DNA of 64,000 nt. It comes from Desulfitibacter sp. BRH_c19. Its GTDB lineage: Bacteria; Bacillota; DSM-16504; Desulfitibacterales; Desulfitibacteraceae. The notes beneath the pieces were generated by a model. The model was not told the DNA's origin. It saw only the letters and a program-made list of their open reading frames with translations, and searched no databases. The stretch covers positions 62,001 through 126,000 of the forward strand of contig LOER01000016.1 of the NCBI GenBank assembly GCA_001515945.1, in the 5' to 3' direction. Made by a program: the position numbers and the translations under genes. The stretch's first letter is position 1, and each line of letters opens with the position of its first letter. Below are positions 5,494 to 14,216 of the stretch, piece after piece.

Positions 5494-6021
5494 CTATGGG
5501 AATAGACTAAGGTTTTCTTTCCATAGTATGATAAAGCGATCTTTACCACCCTTACCACAACGAACCTTGATAAGCATATTAGTGGAGTCAATATCTAAAA
5601 CACAAAGGTTAAGAACCTCACTAATGCGAAGACCTGCAGAATAGGCAGTCAAAAGAATGGTTTTATGCTTCACATTAGGGATGTGATTCATGATTAAGAA
5701 AATTTCATCCTTGGATAGAACATAAGGGAGCTTCTTTACTTTTTTAGGACGAACAATAACCTCATCAGACCAATTACGTTTAAGGATAGAATTAAACATG
5801 AGTTTGAAGGCATTGCAGGAAATGTTAACGTTGCTGTAGCTAATACCTTTCTTAATTCGGTGATGAAAGAACTTTTTAATTTCATCAGGAGAGACCTGAT
5901 CTGCGGATTGACCATAATACTTTTCAAGTAATCGGACATGGCTCAAGTAATGTCTTTTGGTGTTTTGGGAGTATCCACGGAGCTCCATCTCAAACTTCAT
6001 TTTTTCACAATGATTTGTCAT
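5494..6021 (-). pseudogene. Tyrosine recombinase (XerC/D- or integron/IS91-type integrase), 3'-truncated
   Basis: A 175-aa product with the SAM-like core-binding domain (ELRGYSQNTKRHYLSHV at the N-terminus) and the first part of the catalytic domain (TAYSAGLRISEVLNL with the first catalytic Arg, then GKGGKDRFIIL). It stops there, so the catalytic Lys/His-x-x-Arg and the Tyr nucleophile of a roughly 280-330-aa enzyme are missing. AGGAGG precedes the ATG at 6021. The gene points away from the cassette-like genes at 6322 onward, the arrangement of intI relative to its array. The diagnostic extra helix of IntI would lie in the lost part, so IntI cannot be told from IS91-associated or other Xer-like integrases. 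It should be inactive. Confidence 0.8.
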
Positions 6022-6321: not shown

Positions 6322-6834
6322 ATGACCGTTATGATTCAAAATATTGAAGAATCATTATCCGTATCTTATGTCAGCTCTGTTGTTGCTAAGTCTGGCGCAT
6401 CTTTTGACATAACCTCGAAAGATTATGGTGTAGATGTAAGTGTAAGACGAGTAGATAGATTTAACGGAAAATTGATGGATATGGGAGTGTCATTCGATTG
6501 TCAACTGAAAGCGACAACAAACTGGGCAGCAGAAGAGGAAGCTATTGTTTATGATCTTGAGGTAGACACCTACAATAAACTTGTATATAGACATCAAAAC
6601 TCTTCCATCCCATGTTTATTAGTATTATTATGTTTGCCAAAGGAAGAAGATGACTGGTTAAATATTTCAGAAGAAGAAATTATACTTAGGAAATGCTCAT
6701 ATTATTTTTATTTGGATGGTGCGCCAACGAAAAACAAGAATACTGTCAGGATAAGAATACCACGAACAAATGTGTTTTCTCCCGATGCAGTAATAAAGCT
6801 AATTGAAAAAGTACGTTTGGGGGAAATAGCATGA
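6322..6834 (+). CDS. DUF4365 domain protein (predicted PD-(D/E)xK-like nuclease)
   Basis: A 170-aa single-domain protein matching DUF4365: ESLSVSYVSSVVAKSG at the N-terminus, KDYGVDVSVR (33-42), FDCQLKATTNW (58-68), then a segment with LVLLCLPKEEDDW and a terminal IRIPRTNVFS. The spaced Asp (DYGVD) and Gln-x-Lys (CQLKAT) fit the active-site layout of PD-(D/E)xK nuclease-fold proteins. DUF4365 proteins are often found in mobile or defence settings. GAAGAGGTGA precedes the ATG. The stop overlaps the next gene's start (ATGA), so the two are translationally coupled. Nuclease activity is inferred from fold similarity only. Confidence 0.8.
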   Translation: MTVMIQNIEESLSVSYVSSVVAKSGASFDITSKDYGVDVSVRRVDRFNGKLMDMGVSFDCQLKATTNWAAEEEAIVYDLEVDTYNKLVYRHQNSSIPCLLVLLCLPKEEDDWLNISEEEIILRKCSYYFYLDGAPTKNKNTVRIRIPRTNVFSPDAVIKLIEKVRLGEIA

Positions 6835-7967
6835 ATAATTCAAATGATCGGTTCGAGTTTAATAAAATATCTTTGGAGGATATAGAAAGATATCTTATTG
6901 AAAACAATTGGGAGACGAAAGATCATCCCAATAAAAAAATAAGGTTATTCTTAAGTCCTAAAGATAATGAAGGCAATAGACTTGAAGTGCTATTGCCTCA
7001 GAACAGAGAATTGCAGGATTATATTAGAAGAATAAAAGATACGTTGACTATTATGTCGTTAACTAGTGACATGGATATTAATAGCCTAATACAAAAAATC
7101 ACTCTAATAAGTCATGACATCATTAAAGTCAGGATTCTGGATGTTGGGCCTTCAGGGACGATACCTTTATCGGTAGCAGCCAACGATGTGTATGCTTTAA
7201 AAAACTTGTTTATTTATGCTGCAAGTTCTGAAGAAAAAAGCCTTCCGTTCTTTGATAAACCATTAGCTGTTGGCATATATCATGCCGATATATGCCAATT
7301 TGGCCACACGTTTGAAGGAAGTTTTGGATTTACAATTAACTCACCAATTATAGCAAACTATATACAGTTAACGCTTTTTCAAGAAAAAGAGGAAGTGCCC
7401 TTTGAGAGACGTGTTATGGAGCGGATTATTCGTGGATTGGATTTAGTGGAAAAGTCCGTTAATCAAGATAATGCTGATATTTTAGTGGAGAATTTTGACA
7501 TTGGTTTAAATGCTAGAATGTGTGAAGCCCTTTTAGAATTGTCACAAGAAAAGGCTAAGGAAATCAATTTCCATGTATCTTGGAGTCCTAAAATTAGTGT
7601 GCCTGAGGATATAAGAAGTAAACAATTGTGGAAGCTTGAAAAAAAATCATACGAAGTATTAGAATATGCGGCAGATGAGCTAAAGAAAATCGAACCATTT
7701 CAAGAGACTATTGTTGGTCAGATTATTACATTACACTCAACTAAGAATCCAATGAGTGATGAAGCATTTAATCGCCAAGCTATAGTTAAATATGATTACG
7801 ATGGAAAGACAGTATATGTCAAACTTGATTTAGATAGACATCAATATAGGATTGCTTACGAGGCACATGGGAAGGGGCAACTAATAAGAGTGACAGGGGA
7901 ATTGTTCAGGAAGGGTAATACATGGAAAATGACTGACATAGAAGAGATAACTATAGCTATTAGATGA
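6831..7967 (+). CDS. Protein of unknown function, coupled partner of the DUF4365 gene
   Basis: A 378-aa soluble protein with no signal peptide or membrane segment. It starts at the ATG overlapping the previous stop. The N-terminal half contains SNGTI-like GPSGTIPLSVAANDVYALKNL, and the middle region (about 190-290) is rich in charged helices. The C-terminal 70 residues (IVKYDYDGKTVYVKLD, then YRIAYEAHGKGQLIRVTGEL) look like a small beta-barrel. I do not recognise the family. It shares one cassette with the predicted nuclease, between two GTTAGGC core sites, so the two probably act together, perhaps as effector and sensor or immunity partner. That last point is inference. Confidence 0.75.
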   Translation: MNNSNDRFEFNKISLEDIERYLIENNWETKDHPNKKIRLFLSPKDNEGNRLEVLLPQNRELQDYIRRIKDTLTIMSLTSDMDINSLIQKITLISHDIIKVRILDVGPSGTIPLSVAANDVYALKNLFIYAASSEEKSLPFFDKPLAVGIYHADICQFGHTFEGSFGFTINSPIIANYIQLTLFQEKEEVPFERRVMERIIRGLDLVEKSVNQDNADILVENFDIGLNARMCEALLELSQEKAKEINFHVSWSPKISVPEDIRSKQLWKLEKKSYEVLEYAADELKKIEPFQETIVGQIITLHSTKNPMSDEAFNRQAIVKYDYDGKTVYVKLDLDRHQYRIAYEAHGKGQLIRVTGELFRKGNTWKMTDIEEITIAIR

Positions 7968-8197: not shown

Positions 8198-10864
8198 ATG
8201 AAAAAATATTCGGGTTTACAATTTAAGAAGTTTGATCTCCATGTACATACTCCGGGTTCACATGACTTTCAAGACAAGACTGTAACTGCTGAACAGATTG
8301 TAAAAAAAGCCCTTGAGAAGGGGCTAAGAGGTATAGCAATTACCGATCATAATACTGGTGAATGGGTAGATAAAGTAAAAGAGGCTGATAAAGGCAAAAA
8401 TCTGACTATATTTCCTGGTGTTGAAATTTACTGTACTGGTGGTAAAGCCGGGATACATGTAATCGCAATTTTAAGTCCTGATAAAGGCACTAAACATATC
8501 CAAGGTTTATTAGCAACTTTGAAAATTAATCCGGATGATTTTGGGACGCCAAAAGCTGTTACTCCTTTTGCACCCTATCAGGTTATAGATGCGATTTCAT
8601 CCGAACCATACAATGGACTTGCTGTATTAGCTCACTGTACATCATCGAAAGGTGTTCTTCATGATATAACTGGAGAGACTAGGACAAAAATTTTTGAACA
8701 TAAGGGATTATTAGCAGTTGAGACTTCTCTTAATGACTTTATTAATCCTGAAAAGAAAAAGAAATCAATTAGGGCGATTGATTTGTTGAATGGAAAGGAC
8801 CCAAACTATAATTGCCGAAAACTAGGTGTTTATATAGTCTCAGATTCAAAGAAAGGCGATGAAGATAAACATAGTTTAGATGGAATTGGAGCAAAATTTT
8901 CTTATTTTAAGGTTGATGATGAAGTAGATTTGGAGAGTCTTAGACAATGCTTTATCGATAGAGAAGTTCGTATAAGACAGCAATTTGAATTTCAACAACT
9001 AATTTACCCATATATAAAATCTGTGAAAGTAAAGGGTGGCTTTTTTGACGGGCAAGAAGCCATGTTCCATCCTGGTTTAAATAGCATTTTAGGTGCAAAG
9101 GGAGCAGGTAAATCTCTGTTAGTAGAGCTTATGAGATTTGTTTTGGGACAAGTATCGTCTCAAAAGGACATATTTGAAGATCATAATAGAAAGCTACAGA
9201 GAAAGTTAGATACATACGGTTCAGTTGAAGTTAGAGTTCTAGATGAAACTGGGGTAGAACACTATATTGAGCGTACTTATAACCCTACTAAAGGAAATCC
9301 TTATGCAGAAGAAGAACATGAAAGAATTGCGAGTTCATTTCCTATTTTATTTTTAAGCCAAAATGAAATAGTCAAAATTGCAGAAGATGAACAAGAGCAA
9401 ATTCGATTTATAGATAGGTTTTTTGATTTTAAACATTTTCAAAACAGAATAAAAAATATGGAACTCGACTTAAGTGAGTTGGATACACAATTTGCAGGTG
9501 GACTCAAATCTTATAATATTTTGGCTGACATTAGAAAGCAACTCTTGACTAATCGTACTGAGCTTGAAAAACTAAATAAACTTTTATCTGACCCAATTTA
9601 TGACCAGTATAAGTTACTTGAAGAAAAGGATAGAGTTCTAAAGTGGCAACAAACAAGCCTTGAAAACTTACATAACGAGATAAAAGCTGAAATTAATGTA
9701 ATAAAGAAAATGGAATTTCCACATATAGAGGATCCATTATCGAAAGATCCTGTAATAAAAAGGAATCAAGATACTATTAATCTTGTCAGAAATGAAACTG
9801 ATGAATTAATGAACTCTGTATCTGAGGAAATTGAGAAATCTTTAAATAAAATAGAAGTCGAATATAAAAAGTGGAGCTTAATTTTTAACGAAGAAAAGAA
9901 AAAGTATGAAGAACATGTAAGGAAAGCTGGGGGAGATAGAAAAGGCATTGAACTTCAAAGATTGAGAGTAATCAAGCAAATCGATGATTTAGTTAAAAGA
10001 GAAACTTCTCTAATAGAGAAAGCAAATAAATTAAAAAACATTAAAACCCAAAGAGATTCCAAGATGAAAGATTTATTCAAGGTATTTGAAGAATACTCTC
10101 AAGAACGCAAAACTAAATGTAAGAAATTTGAACGTGAATCGGGTGGTTGTTTACAGATTAAAATTCATGAGTCAACCAATGTTGACGAATTTAAAAATAA
10201 ATTATATGTATTGAAGAAAGGATCTTACTTACGAGATTCTGAAATTGACGATATATGTTCTAGAATTACTCCATATGAATTTATTTTAACTTTACTTAGG
10301 TATGAGGTTAAAAAAGATATTACACAACTTACAGAACTCTCAAAAAAGACAGGCGTGGAAATTCAAAAACTTCAAGCTTTATGTGAGTTTCTTCTTAGTC
10401 AAGTTGAGTATGAGGAATTATTACAACTACAATATCGTTCACATCCCCAAGATAGACCAGAAATTAAATTTCGTGTTAATGACGAAAAGTACGAGTTGAT
10501 CAGAGATATATCAGTTGGTCAAAAATGTACTGCTATGCTGATAATGGCACTTAGTGATGGTAAGTTCCCGATAGTTATTGACCAACCAGAGGATTCCTTA
10601 GATGTAAGAAGTGTATGGAATGATATGTGCGTTAAGATTAGAAAGCGAAAAGATAATCGCCAGTTTATTTTTACCACTCATAATTCCTGTCTTGCTGTTG
10701 CCTCAGACACAGATAAATTCACTATTATAGAAAGTGATGCTACACGTGGATCAATTGTAATGTCTGGTGCACTTGAAACCCAAGAGGTTAAGGAGGAAGT
10801 GATCAAATATCTTGAGGGAGGCAGACCAACATTTCAAGCTAAGTCATCAAAATATGGAATTTAG
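8198..10864 (+). CDS. PHP-domain SMC/ABC-type ATPase (TrlF-like)
   Basis: The 888-aa protein starts at ATG 8198, 7 bases after AAAAGGAGG; the longer frame from TTG 8171 lacks a site. Residues 1-260 form a PHP phosphoesterase domain: DLHVHTPGSHD, ITDHN (48-52), FPGVEIY, LAHC, VSDSKKGD. Then come Walker A LGAKGAGKS (298-306), a long coiled coil (about 420-660), the ABC signature ISVGQKC, Walker B IVIDQPEDSLD and the H-loop FIFTTHNS. The layout fits the TrlF family of AAA/SMC-like ATPases carrying a metal-dependent PHP hydrolase; related PHP-SMC genes sit in defence-type islands. Nucleic-acid substrate and role here are inferred. It is the second cassette-like gene after the attC. Confidence 0.85.
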   Translation: MKKYSGLQFKKFDLHVHTPGSHDFQDKTVTAEQIVKKALEKGLRGIAITDHNTGEWVDKVKEADKGKNLTIFPGVEIYCTGGKAGIHVIAILSPDKGTKHIQGLLATLKINPDDFGTPKAVTPFAPYQVIDAISSEPYNGLAVLAHCTSSKGVLHDITGETRTKIFEHKGLLAVETSLNDFINPEKKKKSIRAIDLLNGKDPNYNCRKLGVYIVSDSKKGDEDKHSLDGIGAKFSYFKVDDEVDLESLRQCFIDREVRIRQQFEFQQLIYPYIKSVKVKGGFFDGQEAMFHPGLNSILGAKGAGKSLLVELMRFVLGQVSSQKDIFEDHNRKLQRKLDTYGSVEVRVLDETGVEHYIERTYNPTKGNPYAEEEHERIASSFPILFLSQNEIVKIAEDEQEQIRFIDRFFDFKHFQNRIKNMELDLSELDTQFAGGLKSYNILADIRKQLLTNRTELEKLNKLLSDPIYDQYKLLEEKDRVLKWQQTSLENLHNEIKAEINVIKKMEFPHIEDPLSKDPVIKRNQDTINLVRNETDELMNSVSEEIEKSLNKIEVEYKKWSLIFNEEKKKYEEHVRKAGGDRKGIELQRLRVIKQIDDLVKRETSLIEKANKLKNIKTQRDSKMKDLFKVFEEYSQERKTKCKKFERESGGCLQIKIHESTNVDEFKNKLYVLKKGSYLRDSEIDDICSRITPYEFILTLLRYEVKKDITQLTELSKKTGVEIQKLQALCEFLLSQVEYEELLQLQYRSHPQDRPEIKFRVNDEKYELIRDISVGQKCTAMLIMALSDGKFPIVIDQPEDSLDVRSVWNDMCVKIRKRKDNRQFIFTTHNSCLAVASDTDKFTIIESDATRGSIVMSGALETQEVKEEVIKYLEGGRPTFQAKSSKYGI

Positions 10865-11077: not shown

Positions 11078-11164
11078 GAGTATTCCTAAAATCTGAGAGA
11101 ATATGAATGTAGTAACCAGACTTCGGGAATACACGGTACGTTATCGGGACATGTTTAATTTAAA

Positions 11165-11200
11165 TCTATTGTATAAATCGGGAGAGATTTATACAATAGA
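11165..11200. promoter_or_regulatory. Perfect 15-bp inverted repeat before the phosphoesterase operon
   Basis: TCTATTGTATAAATC (11165-11179) and GATTTATACAATAGA (11186-11200) are exact inverted copies with a 6-nt loop, 28 bases before the likely TTG start and just upstream of its ribosome site. No T-run follows, so it is not an ordinary terminator. It fits an operator for a dimeric repressor or an RNA hairpin controlling translation. Confidence 0.5.
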
Positions 11201-11228
11201 CTTAAATATTTTGGAGGGAGAAGTTGAA

Positions 11229-12032
11229 TTGATAATAATACAATTATCAGATTTGCATATGTGGGCAGGGCATAATTCAGAGGGTATTGATAAACGAATT
11301 CAAGGAATTTTTGATGAAGTAGAAAAGTTTAATGATAATAACATCGTCTGTGTTATATGTGGGGACGTGACCAACAGAGGAAATCCAGACGGATATATTT
11401 GTGCCAAGACTTTTTGCGACAAGTTGAGTTCAAAATTTGAATTGAAAAGTTTTAGGTATGTATTTTGTCCTGGGAACCATGATATTGCCACAGAAGAATG
11501 GAGGAAATTTGCTAGGTTTGATCGTTTTACGTGGGATATAACAAAAAAGACAAATTATGCATTTAGCAATCATAATGTCCAAACAGAAGTAATCCATGAC
11601 TGGGAGTTTCTTATTATTAATAGTGTTTATCATGGAGATCGTAATTATGGTAGGGTGGATATAAATTTACTTAAGGAAAAACTGGACCAATCGAGAAATG
11701 ACAATAAAATATTTATATTGCACCATCACTTAATTCCAATATTAAAGAAAGAGAGATCTGCAACAGAAAATGCTTATGAGTTATTTTTGCTTGCTGAGAA
11801 ATATGGTGTAAAGTTAATTTTGCATGGACATCAGCATATGTATATTAATATTTCAGTTGGGAAAACTCCATGCCAAATTATTGGAGTAGGAAGTTTACTT
11901 AAGAACTCAGGTACGGATTATAGTAATCAGTTTATAATAATAAGTTTAACCGATAGTTTAATAGGAGATTTCAAATGTTTTCGGTATAATGGAGATTGTG
12001 TAGCAAGTGGAACTATGGGAGGATTTATTTAA
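11229..12032 (+). CDS. Calcineurin-like metallophosphoesterase, first gene of a four-gene operon
   Basis: The start is TTG 11229, preceded by GGAGGGAGAAG; an upstream in-frame ATG at 11103 would read through the 15-bp hairpin and add nothing domain-like. The 268-aa protein has the full metal-ligand set: SDLHMW (7-12), GDVTNRG (45-51), GNHD (82-85), the triple His of FILHHHL and HGHQHM near residue 190. The family includes phosphodiesterases and nucleotide phosphatases; the substrate is unknown. It is followed at 19 bases by the TS-like gene. Next to a MazG-like enzyme it may act on nucleotides, which is inference. Confidence 0.8.
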   Translation: MIIIQLSDLHMWAGHNSEGIDKRIQGIFDEVEKFNDNNIVCVICGDVTNRGNPDGYICAKTFCDKLSSKFELKSFRYVFCPGNHDIATEEWRKFARFDRFTWDITKKTNYAFSNHNVQTEVIHDWEFLIINSVYHGDRNYGRVDINLLKEKLDQSRNDNKIFILHHHLIPILKKERSATENAYELFLLAEKYGVKLILHGHQHMYINISVGKTPCQIIGVGSLLKNSGTDYSNQFIIISLTDSLIGDFKCFRYNGDCVASGTMGGFI

Positions 12033-12051
12033 GGTATCTAGGGGGGATATT

Positions 12052-12969
12052 ATGAGTGATGTTAATAATATTATAAGTAATACACTTGAAGAGTTGTATA
12101 ATAGTACATTAGAGCGCTGCCAAGAAGTTCAAGAAAACTTAATCTTAACAGGTACATTTAATATTAACGAGATATACTCACAGTTTATTACCTTGAACTA
12201 TGATATAGCAGAAAAATGGCAAATGGAACAAAAACCACCAGAGTTAATAATAAATCATGGAGAATATATTAACAAAAAAAACCTTGCAGATAGTGAGTCA
12301 GGAATTTCATTTATAATTGAGGAACTAAAGAGGAAAAATGAAGGTAACCGGGCCTGTTTCAGCTTAATTAATATGTATGATATCATTGACAGCGGAGATG
12401 AGGCTATTCCCTCGTTTCTTGTTTTGCAATTTAGTTTTTCTCATTATGATCCAAAAACGCTCCTCGTAACTGCCTATTTTCGTGCTTTAGAAGTTGAAAA
12501 TTTTCTGCCTATAAACTTAGCTGAAATTTGTATAAATATCAATAAGATATGCCAACACTTTCCGAAAATTGAGACATTCAAATTACATCTTGTCGCGTTT
12601 AGGGCTCAGAGAATTAAGAATTTTAGTTGTTTGACTAAATGTACAATAGATGTAATAGATTCTATGAAAATTATGGTGTTGATTGATGATGGAAACAGAA
12701 GTGAGATAGTAAAATTGTTGCAAGAGAAATTGAACTCTAAAGAGTCTGTAATTATTACTGATGGTATTCAATCTTTATCCAAAGGTATGAAATTAAGAGG
12801 ATTCGAAATAATATCTGAACAAATTGATGAAATAGTAAAAGCTATGAATGAAGTTAATACACTTAGAAAAAGTACTTCAGTATACAATGATAAATTAAAA
12901 GAGAAATATCAGGAAATAAGTTGTAACCTGGAAAAAGCATTAAAGTTGATAGAAGAGGAGTGGAACTAA
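12052..12969 (+). CDS. Thymidylate-synthase-fold protein with degenerate active site
   Basis: Start ATG 12052 has AGGGGGG 6 bases upstream. Residues 99-205 of the 305-aa protein follow the thymidylate synthase pattern: NRACFSL, IPSFLVLQFSF, LLVTAYFRALEVENFLPINLAEI. In true enzymes the segment reads FRS-x-D and is followed by a conserved Asn; here Ser and Asp are replaced (FRALE), so classical catalysis is doubtful. The C-terminal 80 residues are charged and helical, probably coiled coil. The assignment is from recognisable sequence pattern, not a search. It sits between a phosphoesterase and a MazG-like gene, suggesting a role in binding or modifying a nucleotide. Confidence 0.6.
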   Translation: MSDVNNIISNTLEELYNSTLERCQEVQENLILTGTFNINEIYSQFITLNYDIAEKWQMEQKPPELIINHGEYINKKNLADSESGISFIIEELKRKNEGNRACFSLINMYDIIDSGDEAIPSFLVLQFSFSHYDPKTLLVTAYFRALEVENFLPINLAEICININKICQHFPKIETFKLHLVAFRAQRIKNFSCLTKCTIDVIDSMKIMVLIDDGNRSEIVKLLQEKLNSKESVIITDGIQSLSKGMKLRGFEIISEQIDEIVKAMNEVNTLRKSTSVYNDKLKEKYQEISCNLEKALKLIEEEWN

Positions 12970-12970
12970 A

Positions 12971-13312
12971 ATGGACTTAAAGGAAATCATCAAGATACAA
13001 GAAGAGTTTGACCAGAATCACTCCAGCAAGTTCAACTGGAACAAAAAAATTACAAATGATAATCTAGAAATGTTAGAATTTATTTTAATTAGTATGTTTG
13101 GGGAAATAGGCGAAACAGCTAATCTAGTAAAAAAAATTATTAGAGGTGATTTCAAATTAGACGAAAAAAGGTCAGCCCTTTCTGAGGAAATAGCAGATAT
13201 ATTTATCTATCTAATTAAACTAAGTAACCAATTAGATATTGACCTAGAACAAAGCTACTTTAATAAGCTGGAGAAAAATAGAAAGAGATTTCAAAGATAT
13301 GAAATTGAATAA
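12971..13312 (+). CDS. MazG-like nucleotide pyrophosphohydrolase
   Basis: The 113-aa all-helical protein has the MazG metal-binding pattern GEIGETANLVKKI (44-56) and EEIADIFIYLIKLSNQLDI (72-90). Family members cleave (d)NTPs or modified nucleotides to monophosphate and pyrophosphate, as house-cleaning enzymes or within phage-bacterium conflict systems. It starts one base after the TS-like stop, and its end overlaps the radical SAM start by 14 bases, so it is translated within the operon. Confidence 0.8.
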   Translation: MDLKEIIKIQEEFDQNHSSKFNWNKKITNDNLEMLEFILISMFGEIGETANLVKKIIRGDFKLDEKRSALSEEIADIFIYLIKLSNQLDIDLEQSYFNKLEKNRKRFQRYEIE

Positions 13313-14216
13313 TATAGATACAATAGAGATTCATTACGAAATTACATCACAGTGCCCACTGAGTTGTAAACATTGTTCATCTGAATCCTCTTACAGAAAC
13401 ACTAACAAAGCAGACTTAGGAAATTATTTAAAACTCTTAAAGATTCTTTCAAAGAAAAACGATATTATCTCAATATTTACTGGTGGAGAGCCATTAATAC
13501 ATGGGAGTCAATTTATTTGTGAATCATTAAAGAAGGTAAATAAGATTGAAAATATTAAGTTGGGCCTATTCACATCAGGTTGTTCTACAGCTAATAATCA
13601 TATTTATCCAGTCACTAAAGAATATGCAAACGAACTAAAAGAAAGTGGTCTTGATTTTGTTTATATGTCGATATATAGCCATAAGCCTGAAATACATGAC
13701 CAAATTACAGGAACGCTAGGTTCTTTCAATGCTTCTTTAAAATCAATCTATAATTTTATTGGAGCAGGAGTTACTGTTAACGCGCACTTGGTTCTTTTAT
13801 CTAATAATGTGACAGACATTAAAGAGACTATCCAATACTTAATTGAATTAGGAATAAAAGAAGTTAGACTGTTACGTCTAGTTAAACATGGGAGAGCTAA
13901 AGATAACTGGAACGAGATAGGGATGTCAAGAGAGGAACAGGCGGATATTGTTAAAAGTATATGCGGTTCTAATCAGTTTAATAGATCTGTTACAGTAAGT
14001 GGTTTTCTAGAGATACAAAATTGTCTTAGTTTCAAAAAGAGCAATAAATGTTACGCAGGTATAAATAAATTATATATAGATAAAGATGGTTATGTTTATG
14101 GGTGTGCTTGTAAGAAAAAGATTGAACTTTTCAGACTTACAAATATAAAAGATATAGATACAAATTTCAGACTCCAACGAATTAATTCATTGGATATGTG
14201 TATGCAAGATTTATAG
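13299..14216 (+). CDS. Radical SAM enzyme with partial SPASM/twitch-like C-terminus
   Basis: A 305-aa radical S-adenosylmethionine enzyme. CPLSCKHC (Cys 19, 23, 26) binds the [4Fe-4S] cluster, TGGEP (61-65) contacts SAM, and conserved beta-barrel strands follow. Near the C-terminus, NKCYAGINKLYIDKDG then VYGCACKK and a final Cys resemble the first half of a SPASM or twitch auxiliary-cluster domain, but the protein ends soon after. It overlaps the MazG-like gene by 14 bases and ends the operon before a hairpin terminator. The substrate is unknown; peptide maturation (usual for SPASM) or nucleotide chemistry (suggested by the neighbours) are both possible. Confidence 0.8.
   Translation: MKLNNIDTIEIHYEITSQCPLSCKHCSSESSYRNTNKADLGNYLKLLKILSKKNDIISIFTGGEPLIHGSQFICESLKKVNKIENIKLGLFTSGCSTANNHIYPVTKEYANELKESGLDFVYMSIYSHKPEIHDQITGTLGSFNASLKSIYNFIGAGVTVNAHLVLLSNNVTDIKETIQYLIELGIKEVRLLRLVKHGRAKDNWNEIGMSREEQADIVKSICGSNQFNRSVTVSGFLEIQNCLSFKKSNKCYAGINKLYIDKDGYVYGCACKKKIELFRLTNIKDIDTNFRLQRINSLDMCMQDL

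What the first reader, a model, noticed from the sequence alone, without database searches (positions are those of the whole stretch)
11229..14216. Four-gene operon: phosphoesterase, TS-fold protein, MazG-like enzyme, radical SAM enzyme
The genes are spaced 19, 1 and -14 bases and end at one terminator, so they act together. The combination of nucleotide-handling folds with a radical SAM enzyme recalls systems that make or destroy modified nucleotides. I know of no described system with this exact set; it is the best candidate here for a new conflict or metabolite pathway.
Basis: inference. Interest (0 to 1): 0.8.

Follow-up and report, generated by a model that had tools for sequence, protein, structure and literature searches.

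The report
Modular nucleotide-sensing defence-like gene cassette
Four tightly packed genes form a mobile cassette found in very different bacteria, in which an apparent nucleotide sensor joined to a phosphoesterase travels with a nucleotide-clearing enzyme and a swappable modifying enzyme, and which looks like an undescribed way for bacteria to detect and fight viruses.

Summary
The operon is real: metallophosphoesterase (MPE), thymidylate-synthase-fold protein (TSL), MazG-family enzyme and radical SAM enzyme (rSAM), spaced +19, +1 and -14 nt. The same set recurs in four other Bacillota; in all four, MPE and TSL are one fused protein. E. coli and a Pseudomonas carry MPE + TSL + the same MazG subfamily, but with a thymidylate-synthase/hydroxymethylase-like enzyme instead of rSAM. 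Priestia, Lysinibacillus and rhizobia carry that MazG with an FMN oxidoreductase and, instead of MPE + TSL, a dCTP-deaminase-fold protein with predicted membrane helices; Psychrobacter combines the latter with the TS-like enzyme. Both candidate sensors lack the usual catalytic residue (TS Cys is Ser in 7 of 7 TSLs; deaminase Glu is Val or Ser in 7 of 7), while MPE, MazG and rSAM motifs are intact. Five of ten loci scanned lie near known or predicted defence genes (window: TrlF, PDC-M02; elsewhere Gabija, CARF6, PDC-M37). Best reading: a modular anti-phage system in which a dead nucleotide enzyme senses a modified pyrimidine nucleotide, set by MazG plus the swappable enzyme, and gates the effector. 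Modularity is shown; sensing, effector role and phage defence are inferred. The claimed terminator was not confirmed.

The parts
11229..12032 (+). Metallophosphoesterase (calcineurin-like), 267 aa; proposed effector. Motifs SDLH, GD, GNHD, HH and HGHQH intact.
   Evidence: PF00149 E 6e-17; NCBIfam nearest DS9_1 anti-phage phosphoesterase E 3e-23, below its cut-off; alignment with 5 homologues plus one N-terminally truncated row
12052..12969 (+). TS-fold protein (TSL), 305 aa: TS-like domain about 2-191, C-terminal helical bundle about 209-305; Ser121 in place of the TS catalytic Cys, Arg144 and Asn155 kept; proposed nucleotide sensor.
   Evidence: AlphaFold2 model and PDB comparison; hhalign TSL against the TS-like enzymes, E 3e-4, probability 41%, Ser121 on Cys151; alignments
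12971..13312 (+). MazG-family all-alpha NTP pyrophosphohydrolase, 113 aa, of the subfamily that goes with the cassette; E45, E48, E73, D76 invariant in 10 of 10.
   Evidence: PF12643/PF03819; alignment A5; tree
13299..14216 (+). Radical SAM enzyme, 305 aa: CX3CX2C plus conserved Cys242, 251, 269, 271, 301 (auxiliary-cluster type); swappable nucleotide-modifying enzyme (inferred).
   Evidence: PF04055 E 4e-17; alignment A6 of 5 sequences; model and fold comparison
11158..11207 (+). 22-nt-arm inverted repeat with 6-nt loop in the leader just before the MPE ribosome-binding site; possible operator or RNA hairpin.
   Evidence: 95% complementary; RNA fold z -4.4; no repeat found before 5 other cassettes; no Rfam match
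8201..10864 (+). Context: TrlF-family PHP-SMC-like ATPase (Ppl-like defence protein).
   Evidence: NF045780 388 bits, above cut-off 350; PADLOC Ppl E 6e-46
6831..7967 (+). Context: PDC-M02B candidate defence protein.
   Evidence: PADLOC E 5e-152
6322..6834 (+). Context: PDC-M02A candidate defence protein (DUF4365).
   Evidence: PADLOC E 3e-63; PF14280 E 4e-22
5494..6021 (-). Context: short tyrosine-recombinase (integrase) reading frame left of the defence genes.
   Evidence: PF13495 E 5e-12; PF00589 over profile positions 2-76 of 172 only

Best explanation
A modular, horizontally spread defence-type cassette that guards the pyrimidine nucleotide pool. Shown: a core of sensor-effector (MPE + TSL, often fused) and a dedicated MazG, with an exchangeable fourth enzyme (rSAM here; TS/hydroxymethylase-like with or without thymidylate kinase, or FMN oxidoreductase elsewhere); and an exchangeable sensor-effector (MPE + TSL, or dCTP-deaminase fold plus predicted membrane helices). 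Inferred: the rSAM, TS-like or FMN enzyme makes a modified pyrimidine nucleotide; MazG removes or resets its triphosphate; the catalytically dead TS or dCTP-deaminase domain binds this nucleotide (or the natural one it competes with) and holds the effector, MPE or membrane helices, inactive; when a phage remodels the nucleotide pool or its enzymes use up the signal, the effector is released and the cell or phage nucleic acid or nucleotides are destroyed.
For: Recurrence and fusion of MPE-TSL with MazG and rSAM in Desulfosporosinus, Fusibacter, an Oscillospiraceae MAG and a Clostridiales MAG. Enzyme swap in E. coli and Pseudomonas. Sensor swap in Priestia, Lysinibacillus, Sinorhizobium, Rhizobium, Psychrobacter, G691. 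In the MazG tree E. coli (MPE+TSL) is sister to Psychrobacter (DCD-TM) with 97/90 support, Pseudomonas (MPE+TSL) next to them, so a sensor module was exchanged inside one MazG lineage. Catalytic Cys to Ser in 7 of 7 TSLs with Arg and Asn kept; DCD Glu to Val (5) or Ser (2) in 7 DCD-fold rows, one of which (L017) has no annotated MazG; hydropathy-predicted helices after the DCD domain in 6 of 7, the seventh (G691, row cut at 200 residues) being fused to MazG instead. The TS-like enzyme is closest in the PDB to CMP 5-hydroxymethylase MilA (E 4e-26). Defence neighbours at 5 of 10 loci. Patchy spread: 1 of 398 genomes of the phylum for TSL. Kin of the variable enzymes sit in nucleotide-modification operons, one with a TIR protein.
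Against: No experiment; I found no report that a copy of this cassette stops a phage. Sensor function rests on missing catalytic residues and kept binding residues, not on a ligand; named dCTP deaminases 8y1w and 9ln0 also lack the Glu at that column. Flanking genes scanned at Desulfosporosinus, Fusibacter, Lysinibacillus and Pseudomonas (one or two each) gave no PADLOC match, and at G691 only a methyltransferase and a weak protease match. The cassette proteins scanned have no strong PADLOC match: window TSL and MazG, Psychrobacter TS-like, Priestia DCD-TM and Desulfosporosinus MPE-TSL none, window MPE partial (best E 6e-8), rSAM pVip E 6e-9. MPE could be the enzyme that acts on the nucleotide rather than an effector. 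The substrate of the rSAM is unknown; its fold is equally close to viperin and to peptide maturases. Pattern-limited scans of viral contigs gave no TSL or rSAM relative.
Confidence: 0.5

Rival explanations
1. Direct nucleotide depletion: MazG turns dNTP into dNMP, TSL captures the dNMP and the MPE dephosphorylates it, starving the phage, as dCTP deaminases and dGTPases do; the fourth enzyme is a regulator or broadens the substrate.
For: MPE and MazG motifs are intact and TSL keeps the Arg and Asn of the TS nucleotide site; MPE and TSL are fused in four genomes.
Against: In six of the 13 lineages in hand MPE and TSL are replaced by a deaminase-fold protein, mostly with membrane helices, that lacks the usual Glu. 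A TS-like enzyme and, in two genera, a thymidylate kinase in the same operon would make nucleotides, not remove them.
Confidence: 0.2
2. Toxic nucleotide analogue, viperin-like: the variable enzyme makes a chain-terminating or miscoding nucleotide and MazG protects the host by hydrolysing its triphosphate.
For: The rSAM model is as close to viperin (Z 22.7) as to anything, PADLOC pVip matches at E 6e-9 and matches its Parabacteroides relative at E 9e-14, and the TS-like enzyme resembles MilA, an enzyme of nucleoside-antibiotic synthesis (recalled).
Against: SPASM-type families match the rSAM better (HxsC 81 bits against pVip 34 bits), it carries five extra conserved cysteines, and SkfB is tied at Z 22.5. 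It gives no role to dead TS or DCD domains or to the membrane helices.
Confidence: 0.15
3. DNA base hypermodification with restriction: the modified nucleotide enters DNA and the MPE cuts unmodified DNA.
For: Relatives of the variable enzymes lie in operons with aGPT-PPlase/ADDT, Nmad2 and HMUDK_hel families; MPE folds include DNA nucleases (recalled).
Against: Pfam shows no enzyme acting on DNA bases and no DNA-binding domain in the cassette proteins scanned; the deaminase-membrane version has no recognisable nuclease.
Confidence: 0.08
4. Ordinary house-cleaning or metabolic operon that merely travels in islands.
For: MazG and MPE are common house-cleaning families (recalled); the cassette's own proteins have no strong defence-library match.
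Against: Rare and patchy (1 of 398 phylum genomes; 1 of 4 of the class), on conjugative plasmids, beside defence genes and an integrase frame, with missing catalytic residues, and the genome has its own TS.
Confidence: 0.07

Closest known systems
Clover (CloA dNTPase + CloB), PMC12265719 (outline with abstract, and section 3, read)
   Same: Logic: nucleotide pool sensing, with activating and inhibiting nucleotides controlling an effector.
   Different: No shared protein family in the text read; Clover uses an HD dNTPase and a nucleotidyltransferase, not MazG, TS-fold, DCD or rSAM.
DefensePredictor systems (DS-8/DS-9 metallophosphatases; a validated system with a thymidylate synthase domain; MazG among predicted untested defence domains), PMC13092281 (passages, sections 5, 7 and 15 read; figures and supplements not seen)
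   Same: MPE (nearest NCBIfam model is DS9_1, E 3e-23), TS and MazG domains all flagged as defence-linked.
   Different: DS-9 pairs its MPE with a HAD phosphatase, DS-8 fuses it to NACHT; the four-gene set and its dead sensors are not described in the text read. Whether a figure or supplement shows one of these operons could not be checked.
Prokaryotic viperins (pVip)
   Same: Radical SAM enzyme acting on nucleotides is the analogy; weak PADLOC match; fold Z 22.7.
   Different: Better sequence matches to SPASM/HxsC families, extra conserved Cys, constant partners MazG and MPE-TSL.
Nucleotide/base hypermodification operons (Nmad, aGPT-PPlase, HMUDK, ADDT families)
   Same: Plasmid relatives of the rSAM (29% identity) and of the TS-like enzyme (31%) sit in such operons, one with membrane and TIR proteins.
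   Different: The cassette lacks those families and has MazG plus a dead TS- or DCD-fold protein instead.
MilA/TS family (thymidylate synthase, CMP hydroxymethylase)
   Same: TSL fold; swappable TS-like enzyme best matches MilA.
   Different: TSL has Ser for Cys and, by eye, no TS C-terminal His/Tyr motif in the alignment; it is followed by a helical bundle.

Membership tests
Thymidylate synthase (enzyme) - for TSL | TS fold | tested here: met
   VIA Z about 10-12 to TS-family chains over residues 2-191; Foldseek alone E 1.7e-3
Thymidylate synthase (enzyme) - for TSL | Catalytic cysteine | tested here: not met
   Ser at that column in 7 of 7; hhalign puts Ser121 on Cys151 of the TS-like enzymes
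Active dCTP deaminase - for the DCD-TM proteins | Catalytic glutamate (role recalled) | tested here: not met
   Val in 5 and Ser in 2 of 7 rows; aligned with Glu of a canonical deaminase chain, PDB 4a6a. Against: the best PDB matches 8y1w and 9ln0, named dCTP deaminase, show Met there
MazG NTP pyrophosphohydrolase | ExxE ... ExxD metal-binding motif (recalled) | tested here: met
   E45, E48, E73, D76 invariant in 10 of 10 and in the rhizobial rows of A3; PF12643 27.6 bits, cut-off 27
Calcineurin-like metallophosphoesterase | DxH, GD, GNHD/E, H, GHxH motifs | tested here: met
   All present in window MPE and 5 homologues; the seventh row is truncated and keeps the C-terminal motifs
Radical SAM/SPASM-type enzyme | CX3CX2C and further conserved Cys | tested here: met
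   5 of 5; SPASM Pfam itself only E 0.2
pVip | Best sequence match to viperin models | tested here: not met
   pVip 33.8 bits against HxsC 80.7 bits
pVip | Viperin fold | tested here: inconclusive
   Z 22.7 viperin, 22.5 SkfB, 21.5 BlsE: about tied
DS-9 anti-phage phosphoesterase | NCBIfam cut-off score; HAD partner | tested here: not met
   82.5 bits, cut-off 420; no HAD family among the seven genes scanned
Anti-phage defence system | Protection against phage | not testable with these tools
   Needs plating assays
Anti-phage defence system | Location beside other defence genes | tested here: met
   5 of 10 loci scanned: window, Rhizobium, Sinorhizobium, Priestia, and (less specific, Old-like ATPase) Psychrobacter; 4 with no match and 1 (G691) with only a methyltransferase and a weak protease match

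The most novel reading that the evidence does not exclude
A new class of immune logic: catalytically dead nucleotide enzymes (TS fold or dCTP-deaminase fold) serve as interchangeable sensors of a dedicated modified pyrimidine nucleotide, kept at set level by MazG and by interchangeable enzymes from three unrelated superfamilies (radical SAM, TS/hydroxymethylase, FMN oxidoreductase), and trigger interchangeable effectors (phosphoesterase, membrane helices, possibly a trypsin-like protease) when phages disturb the pool.
Probability: 0.35. Interest if true: 0.9.

Novelty: new variant of a known kind. Interest (0 to 1): 0.75.

Why it matters
If true, it extends nucleotide-pool sensing in bacterial immunity to a modular family with an unknown small-molecule signal, found from Bacillota to Pseudomonadota. 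The E. coli copies make it directly testable in laboratory strains. It also offers a route to new pyrimidine chemistry: three unrelated enzyme types appear to fill the same slot, so identifying one product would constrain the others.

Tried and rejected
TSL as a plain sequence relative of solved proteins: phmmer (only chance-level rows, E 0.16 and worse) and a profile search of the PDB found nothing; only the model and hhalign showed the fold.

First collection scans with TSL queries found no relatives, nor did A7 (TSL) and A6 (rSAM) in viral contigs; these scans need exact short patterns and can miss divergent copies. A MazG scan worked. MazG hits in the phylum sample (4 genomes besides G000; ORFs read) and the five viral loci (checked) showed no partner genes. 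The nearest non-cassette MazG, Pyrobaculum L030, has no partner.

Phages collection: no TSL match. Vibrio plasmid L008 MazG: no partner genes by annotation. Rhizobium L017: a DCD-like protein with a predicted membrane helix near a uracil-DNA glycosylase, no MazG annotated; it is one of the 7 DCD-fold rows.

Terminator claim: not confirmed. RNA element in the leader: no Rfam match; the inverted repeat is not seen before 5 other cassettes.

Thymidylate kinase as a general part: seen only in Pseudomonas and Psychrobacter; not in the window or E. coli operon. No match at E 1e-25 on plasmids.

PADLOC control: of 9 window proteins outside the defence genes, 6 gave no match, 2 AAA proteins matched weakly (E 1e-9, 1e-6) and a UvrD helicase matched GajB at 4e-82. 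Helicase, ATPase and methyltransferase matches are thus not specific; the Old-like ATPase near Psychrobacter and the methyltransferases count for little.

Literature: ten full-text searches listed no description of this gene set. Two papers that I recall as relevant were not held.
Full report
WHAT IS THERE. The window (3.85-Mb genome) carries four closely packed + strand genes: MPE 11229-12032, TSL 12052-12969, MazG 12971-13312, rSAM 13299-14216. The stated spacings are right. Upstream on the same strand lie PDC-M02A, PDC-M02B and a TrlF-family ATPase, and a short integrase frame on the other strand. Downstream follow a 3-methyladenine glycosylase, a LysM protein and LexA, and then a long run of genes mostly on the other strand. 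The operon thus sits in a small island of defence-type genes.

IDENTITY OF THE PROTEINS. MPE and rSAM are clear by Pfam; MazG is just over its cut-offs. The TSL is nearly invisible to sequence search, but six TSL sequences gave a model with mean pLDDT 74.8 whose first 190 residues match the thymidylate-synthase family (Z up to 11.9, nearest a dCMP hydroxylase and CMP hydroxymethylase MilA); the last 100 residues are a helical bundle. Low-confidence loops include 68-81 and 109-121, which end at the Ser discussed next, so residue-level claims rest on the alignments. hhalign (E 3e-4, probability 41%) aligns TSL Ser121 with Cys151 of the TS-like enzymes and keeps Arg144 and Asn155. Ser is invariant in 7 of 7 TSLs. 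The genome has a separate normal TS.

RECURRENCE. A MazG-based scan of genome contigs (84,980 species) gave 32 loci. The best 7 of 32 carry partner genes; in the other 25 phmmer (E 1e-4) found no partner in the DNA held, some of which is short. Four of the 7 (Desulfosporosinus fructosivorans, Fusibacter sp. 3D3, an Oscillospiraceae and a Clostridiales MAG) have MPE-TSL as one protein (575, 573 and 586 aa; the Clostridiales one, 449 aa, is cut by the contig end), then MazG, then rSAM of the same subfamily (34-39% identical to the window's). This is a direct sign that MPE and TSL work together.

SWAP OF THE ENZYME. E. coli (two IncHI1B plasmid records; five of 5,426 complete genomes, on chromosomes) and Pseudomonas bubulae have MPE, TSL and MazG followed by a TS-like enzyme; in plasmid L003 the TS-like gene is frameshifted. 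The enzyme keeps its Cys and the His and Tyr of the TS pocket (roles recalled) and in the PDB is nearest to CMP 5-hydroxymethylase. Pseudomonas also has a thymidylate kinase inside the operon (PF02223 E 4e-40).

SWAP OF THE SENSOR-EFFECTOR. Priestia, Lysinibacillus, Sinorhizobium and Rhizobium have the MazG subfamily with an FMN oxidoreductase (PF00724) and, in first place, a dCTP-deaminase-fold protein with one or two C-terminal helices predicted from hydropathy. In one copy (Priestia L007) MazG was matched in two pieces and is not annotated, so it may be broken. Two Psychrobacter-type genomes (L025/G400 and G1276 of its family) have thymidylate kinase, MazG and TS-like enzyme with a divergent DCD-TM gene, and no MPE or TSL beside them; their flanks are the same, so they are one event. 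In G691, DCD and MazG are fused, followed by a relative of the FMN oxidoreductase (PF00724 below its cut-off), with a divergent trypsin-like protease gene beside it; that the protease is the effector there is a guess. The DCD-fold proteins have Val or Ser where a canonical deaminase has Glu, though two solved proteins named dCTP deaminase have Met there.

INDEPENDENCE OF THE SWAPS. In a tree of 13 cassette MazGs and 27 others the cassette MazGs cluster (2 changes; shuffled mean 11.2; 0 of 500 shuffles as low). They are not shown to be one clade: the Pyrobaculum MazG and a long-branched phage MazG fall among them, and 7% of bootstrap trees have one change. MazGs in hand that were not put in the tree: L008, L011, L013-L016, L021, L022, L041 and near-copies of rows used. 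E. coli and Psychrobacter MazGs are sisters (97/90) with different sensor modules.

DEFENCE CONTEXT. Of 10 loci whose flanks I scanned, 5 have strong PADLOC matches: window (TrlF/Ppl-like, PDC-M02A/B), Rhizobium (Gabija just upstream, GajA E 1e-279, GajB 7e-248), Sinorhizobium (CARF6 E 2e-45), Priestia (PDC-M37A/B, PDC-S60) and Psychrobacter (Old-like ATPase, less specific). Four gave none (Desulfosporosinus, Fusibacter, Lysinibacillus, Pseudomonas; one or two flanking genes tested each) and G691 gave a methyltransferase and a weak protease match. By protein: 7 of 10 and 3 of 10 matched. PDC labels are themselves predictions, and the control shows that helicases and ATPases match unspecifically. 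The spread is patchy: 1 of 398 genomes of the phylum for TSL, and for the MazG profile 2 of 398, 1 of 250, 1 of 82, 2 of 189 and 1 of 187 in samples around other carriers. Each of these counts includes the carrier used as centre, so only G691 and G1276 are new.

KIN OF THE VARIABLE ENZYMES. The best plasmid relative of the window rSAM (29%, Parabacteroides) sits in an operon of a membrane protein (PDC-M50A-like), a ThsB-like TIR protein, Nmad2, a 5-hmdU DNA kinase helical-domain protein, the rSAM and a protein without a Pfam match. A TS-like relative on a Rhizobium plasmid is followed by an aGPT-PPlase3/ADDT family protein; a Roseomonas copy looks alike by eye, and the Neorhizobium copy has the same order by annotation. 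I looked at 3 of the 145 plasmid records with TS matches, and at 1 of 77 with rSAM matches; many of the rest are ordinary TS or PqqE. The swappable slot thus seems filled from enzyme pools also used in nucleotide-modification operons.

MECHANISM. The facts that need one explanation are: two unrelated nucleotide enzymes, both lacking the usual catalytic residue, occupy the same operon slot; one is fused to a phosphoesterase, the other to predicted membrane helices; both travel with one MazG subfamily; and three unrelated enzyme types share the last slot. A sensor-effector gated by a modified pyrimidine nucleotide explains all of them. Clover, in which dTTP activates and p3diT inhibits an effector (PMC12265719, outline with abstract and section 3 read), shows that such logic exists. 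The ligand, its sign (activating or inhibiting) and the effector's target are unknown.

NOVELTY. Ten literature searches listed no such set. DefensePredictor (passages and sections 5, 7, 15) lists MazG as a predicted, untested defence domain and validated a TS-containing and two metallophosphatase systems; its figures and supplements could not be seen, so a related operon may be drawn there. I therefore call it a new variant of nucleotide-centred defence, with a fair chance of being a new class.

Noticed in passing
window 11158-11207: Near-perfect 22-nt-arm inverted repeat in the leader before MPE (RNA fold z -4.4); not found before five other cassettes; possible operator or regulatory hairpin.
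   Followed up: partly
L073:1348-6506: Parabacteroides plasmid operon: membrane protein (PDC-M50A-like), ThsB-like TIR, Nmad2, 5-hmdU kinase helical domain, radical SAM related to the window's, and a 521-aa protein without a Pfam match; looks like another nucleotide-modification-linked defence system.
   Followed up: partly
L070:3085-7074, L071:3995-7075, L072:3100-7029: Plasmid-borne TS-like gene followed by an aGPT-PPlase3/ADDT family gene (Pfam on Rhizobium L070; Roseomonas L071 by eye; Neorhizobium L072 by gene order only), facing a gene annotated ImmA/IrrE family in L070 and L071.
   Followed up: partly
L058:6263-7105: Trypsin-like protease gene divergent to a fused DCD-MazG protein in G691; could be an alternative effector.
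   Followed up: no
L020:260-3811: Phage contig with a MazG beside genes that look by eye like QueD, QueE, FolE and a DpdA-like transglycosylase, i.e. 7-deazaguanine DNA modification.
   Followed up: no
L025:7067-7429 and L023:7009-7425: Small proteins of 120-138 aa follow the TS-like gene in Psychrobacter and Pseudomonas; relation to each other not tested.
   Followed up: no
L017:4920-5654: Rhizobium leguminosarum DCD-fold protein with one predicted membrane helix near a uracil-DNA glycosylase gene, without an annotated MazG.
   Followed up: no
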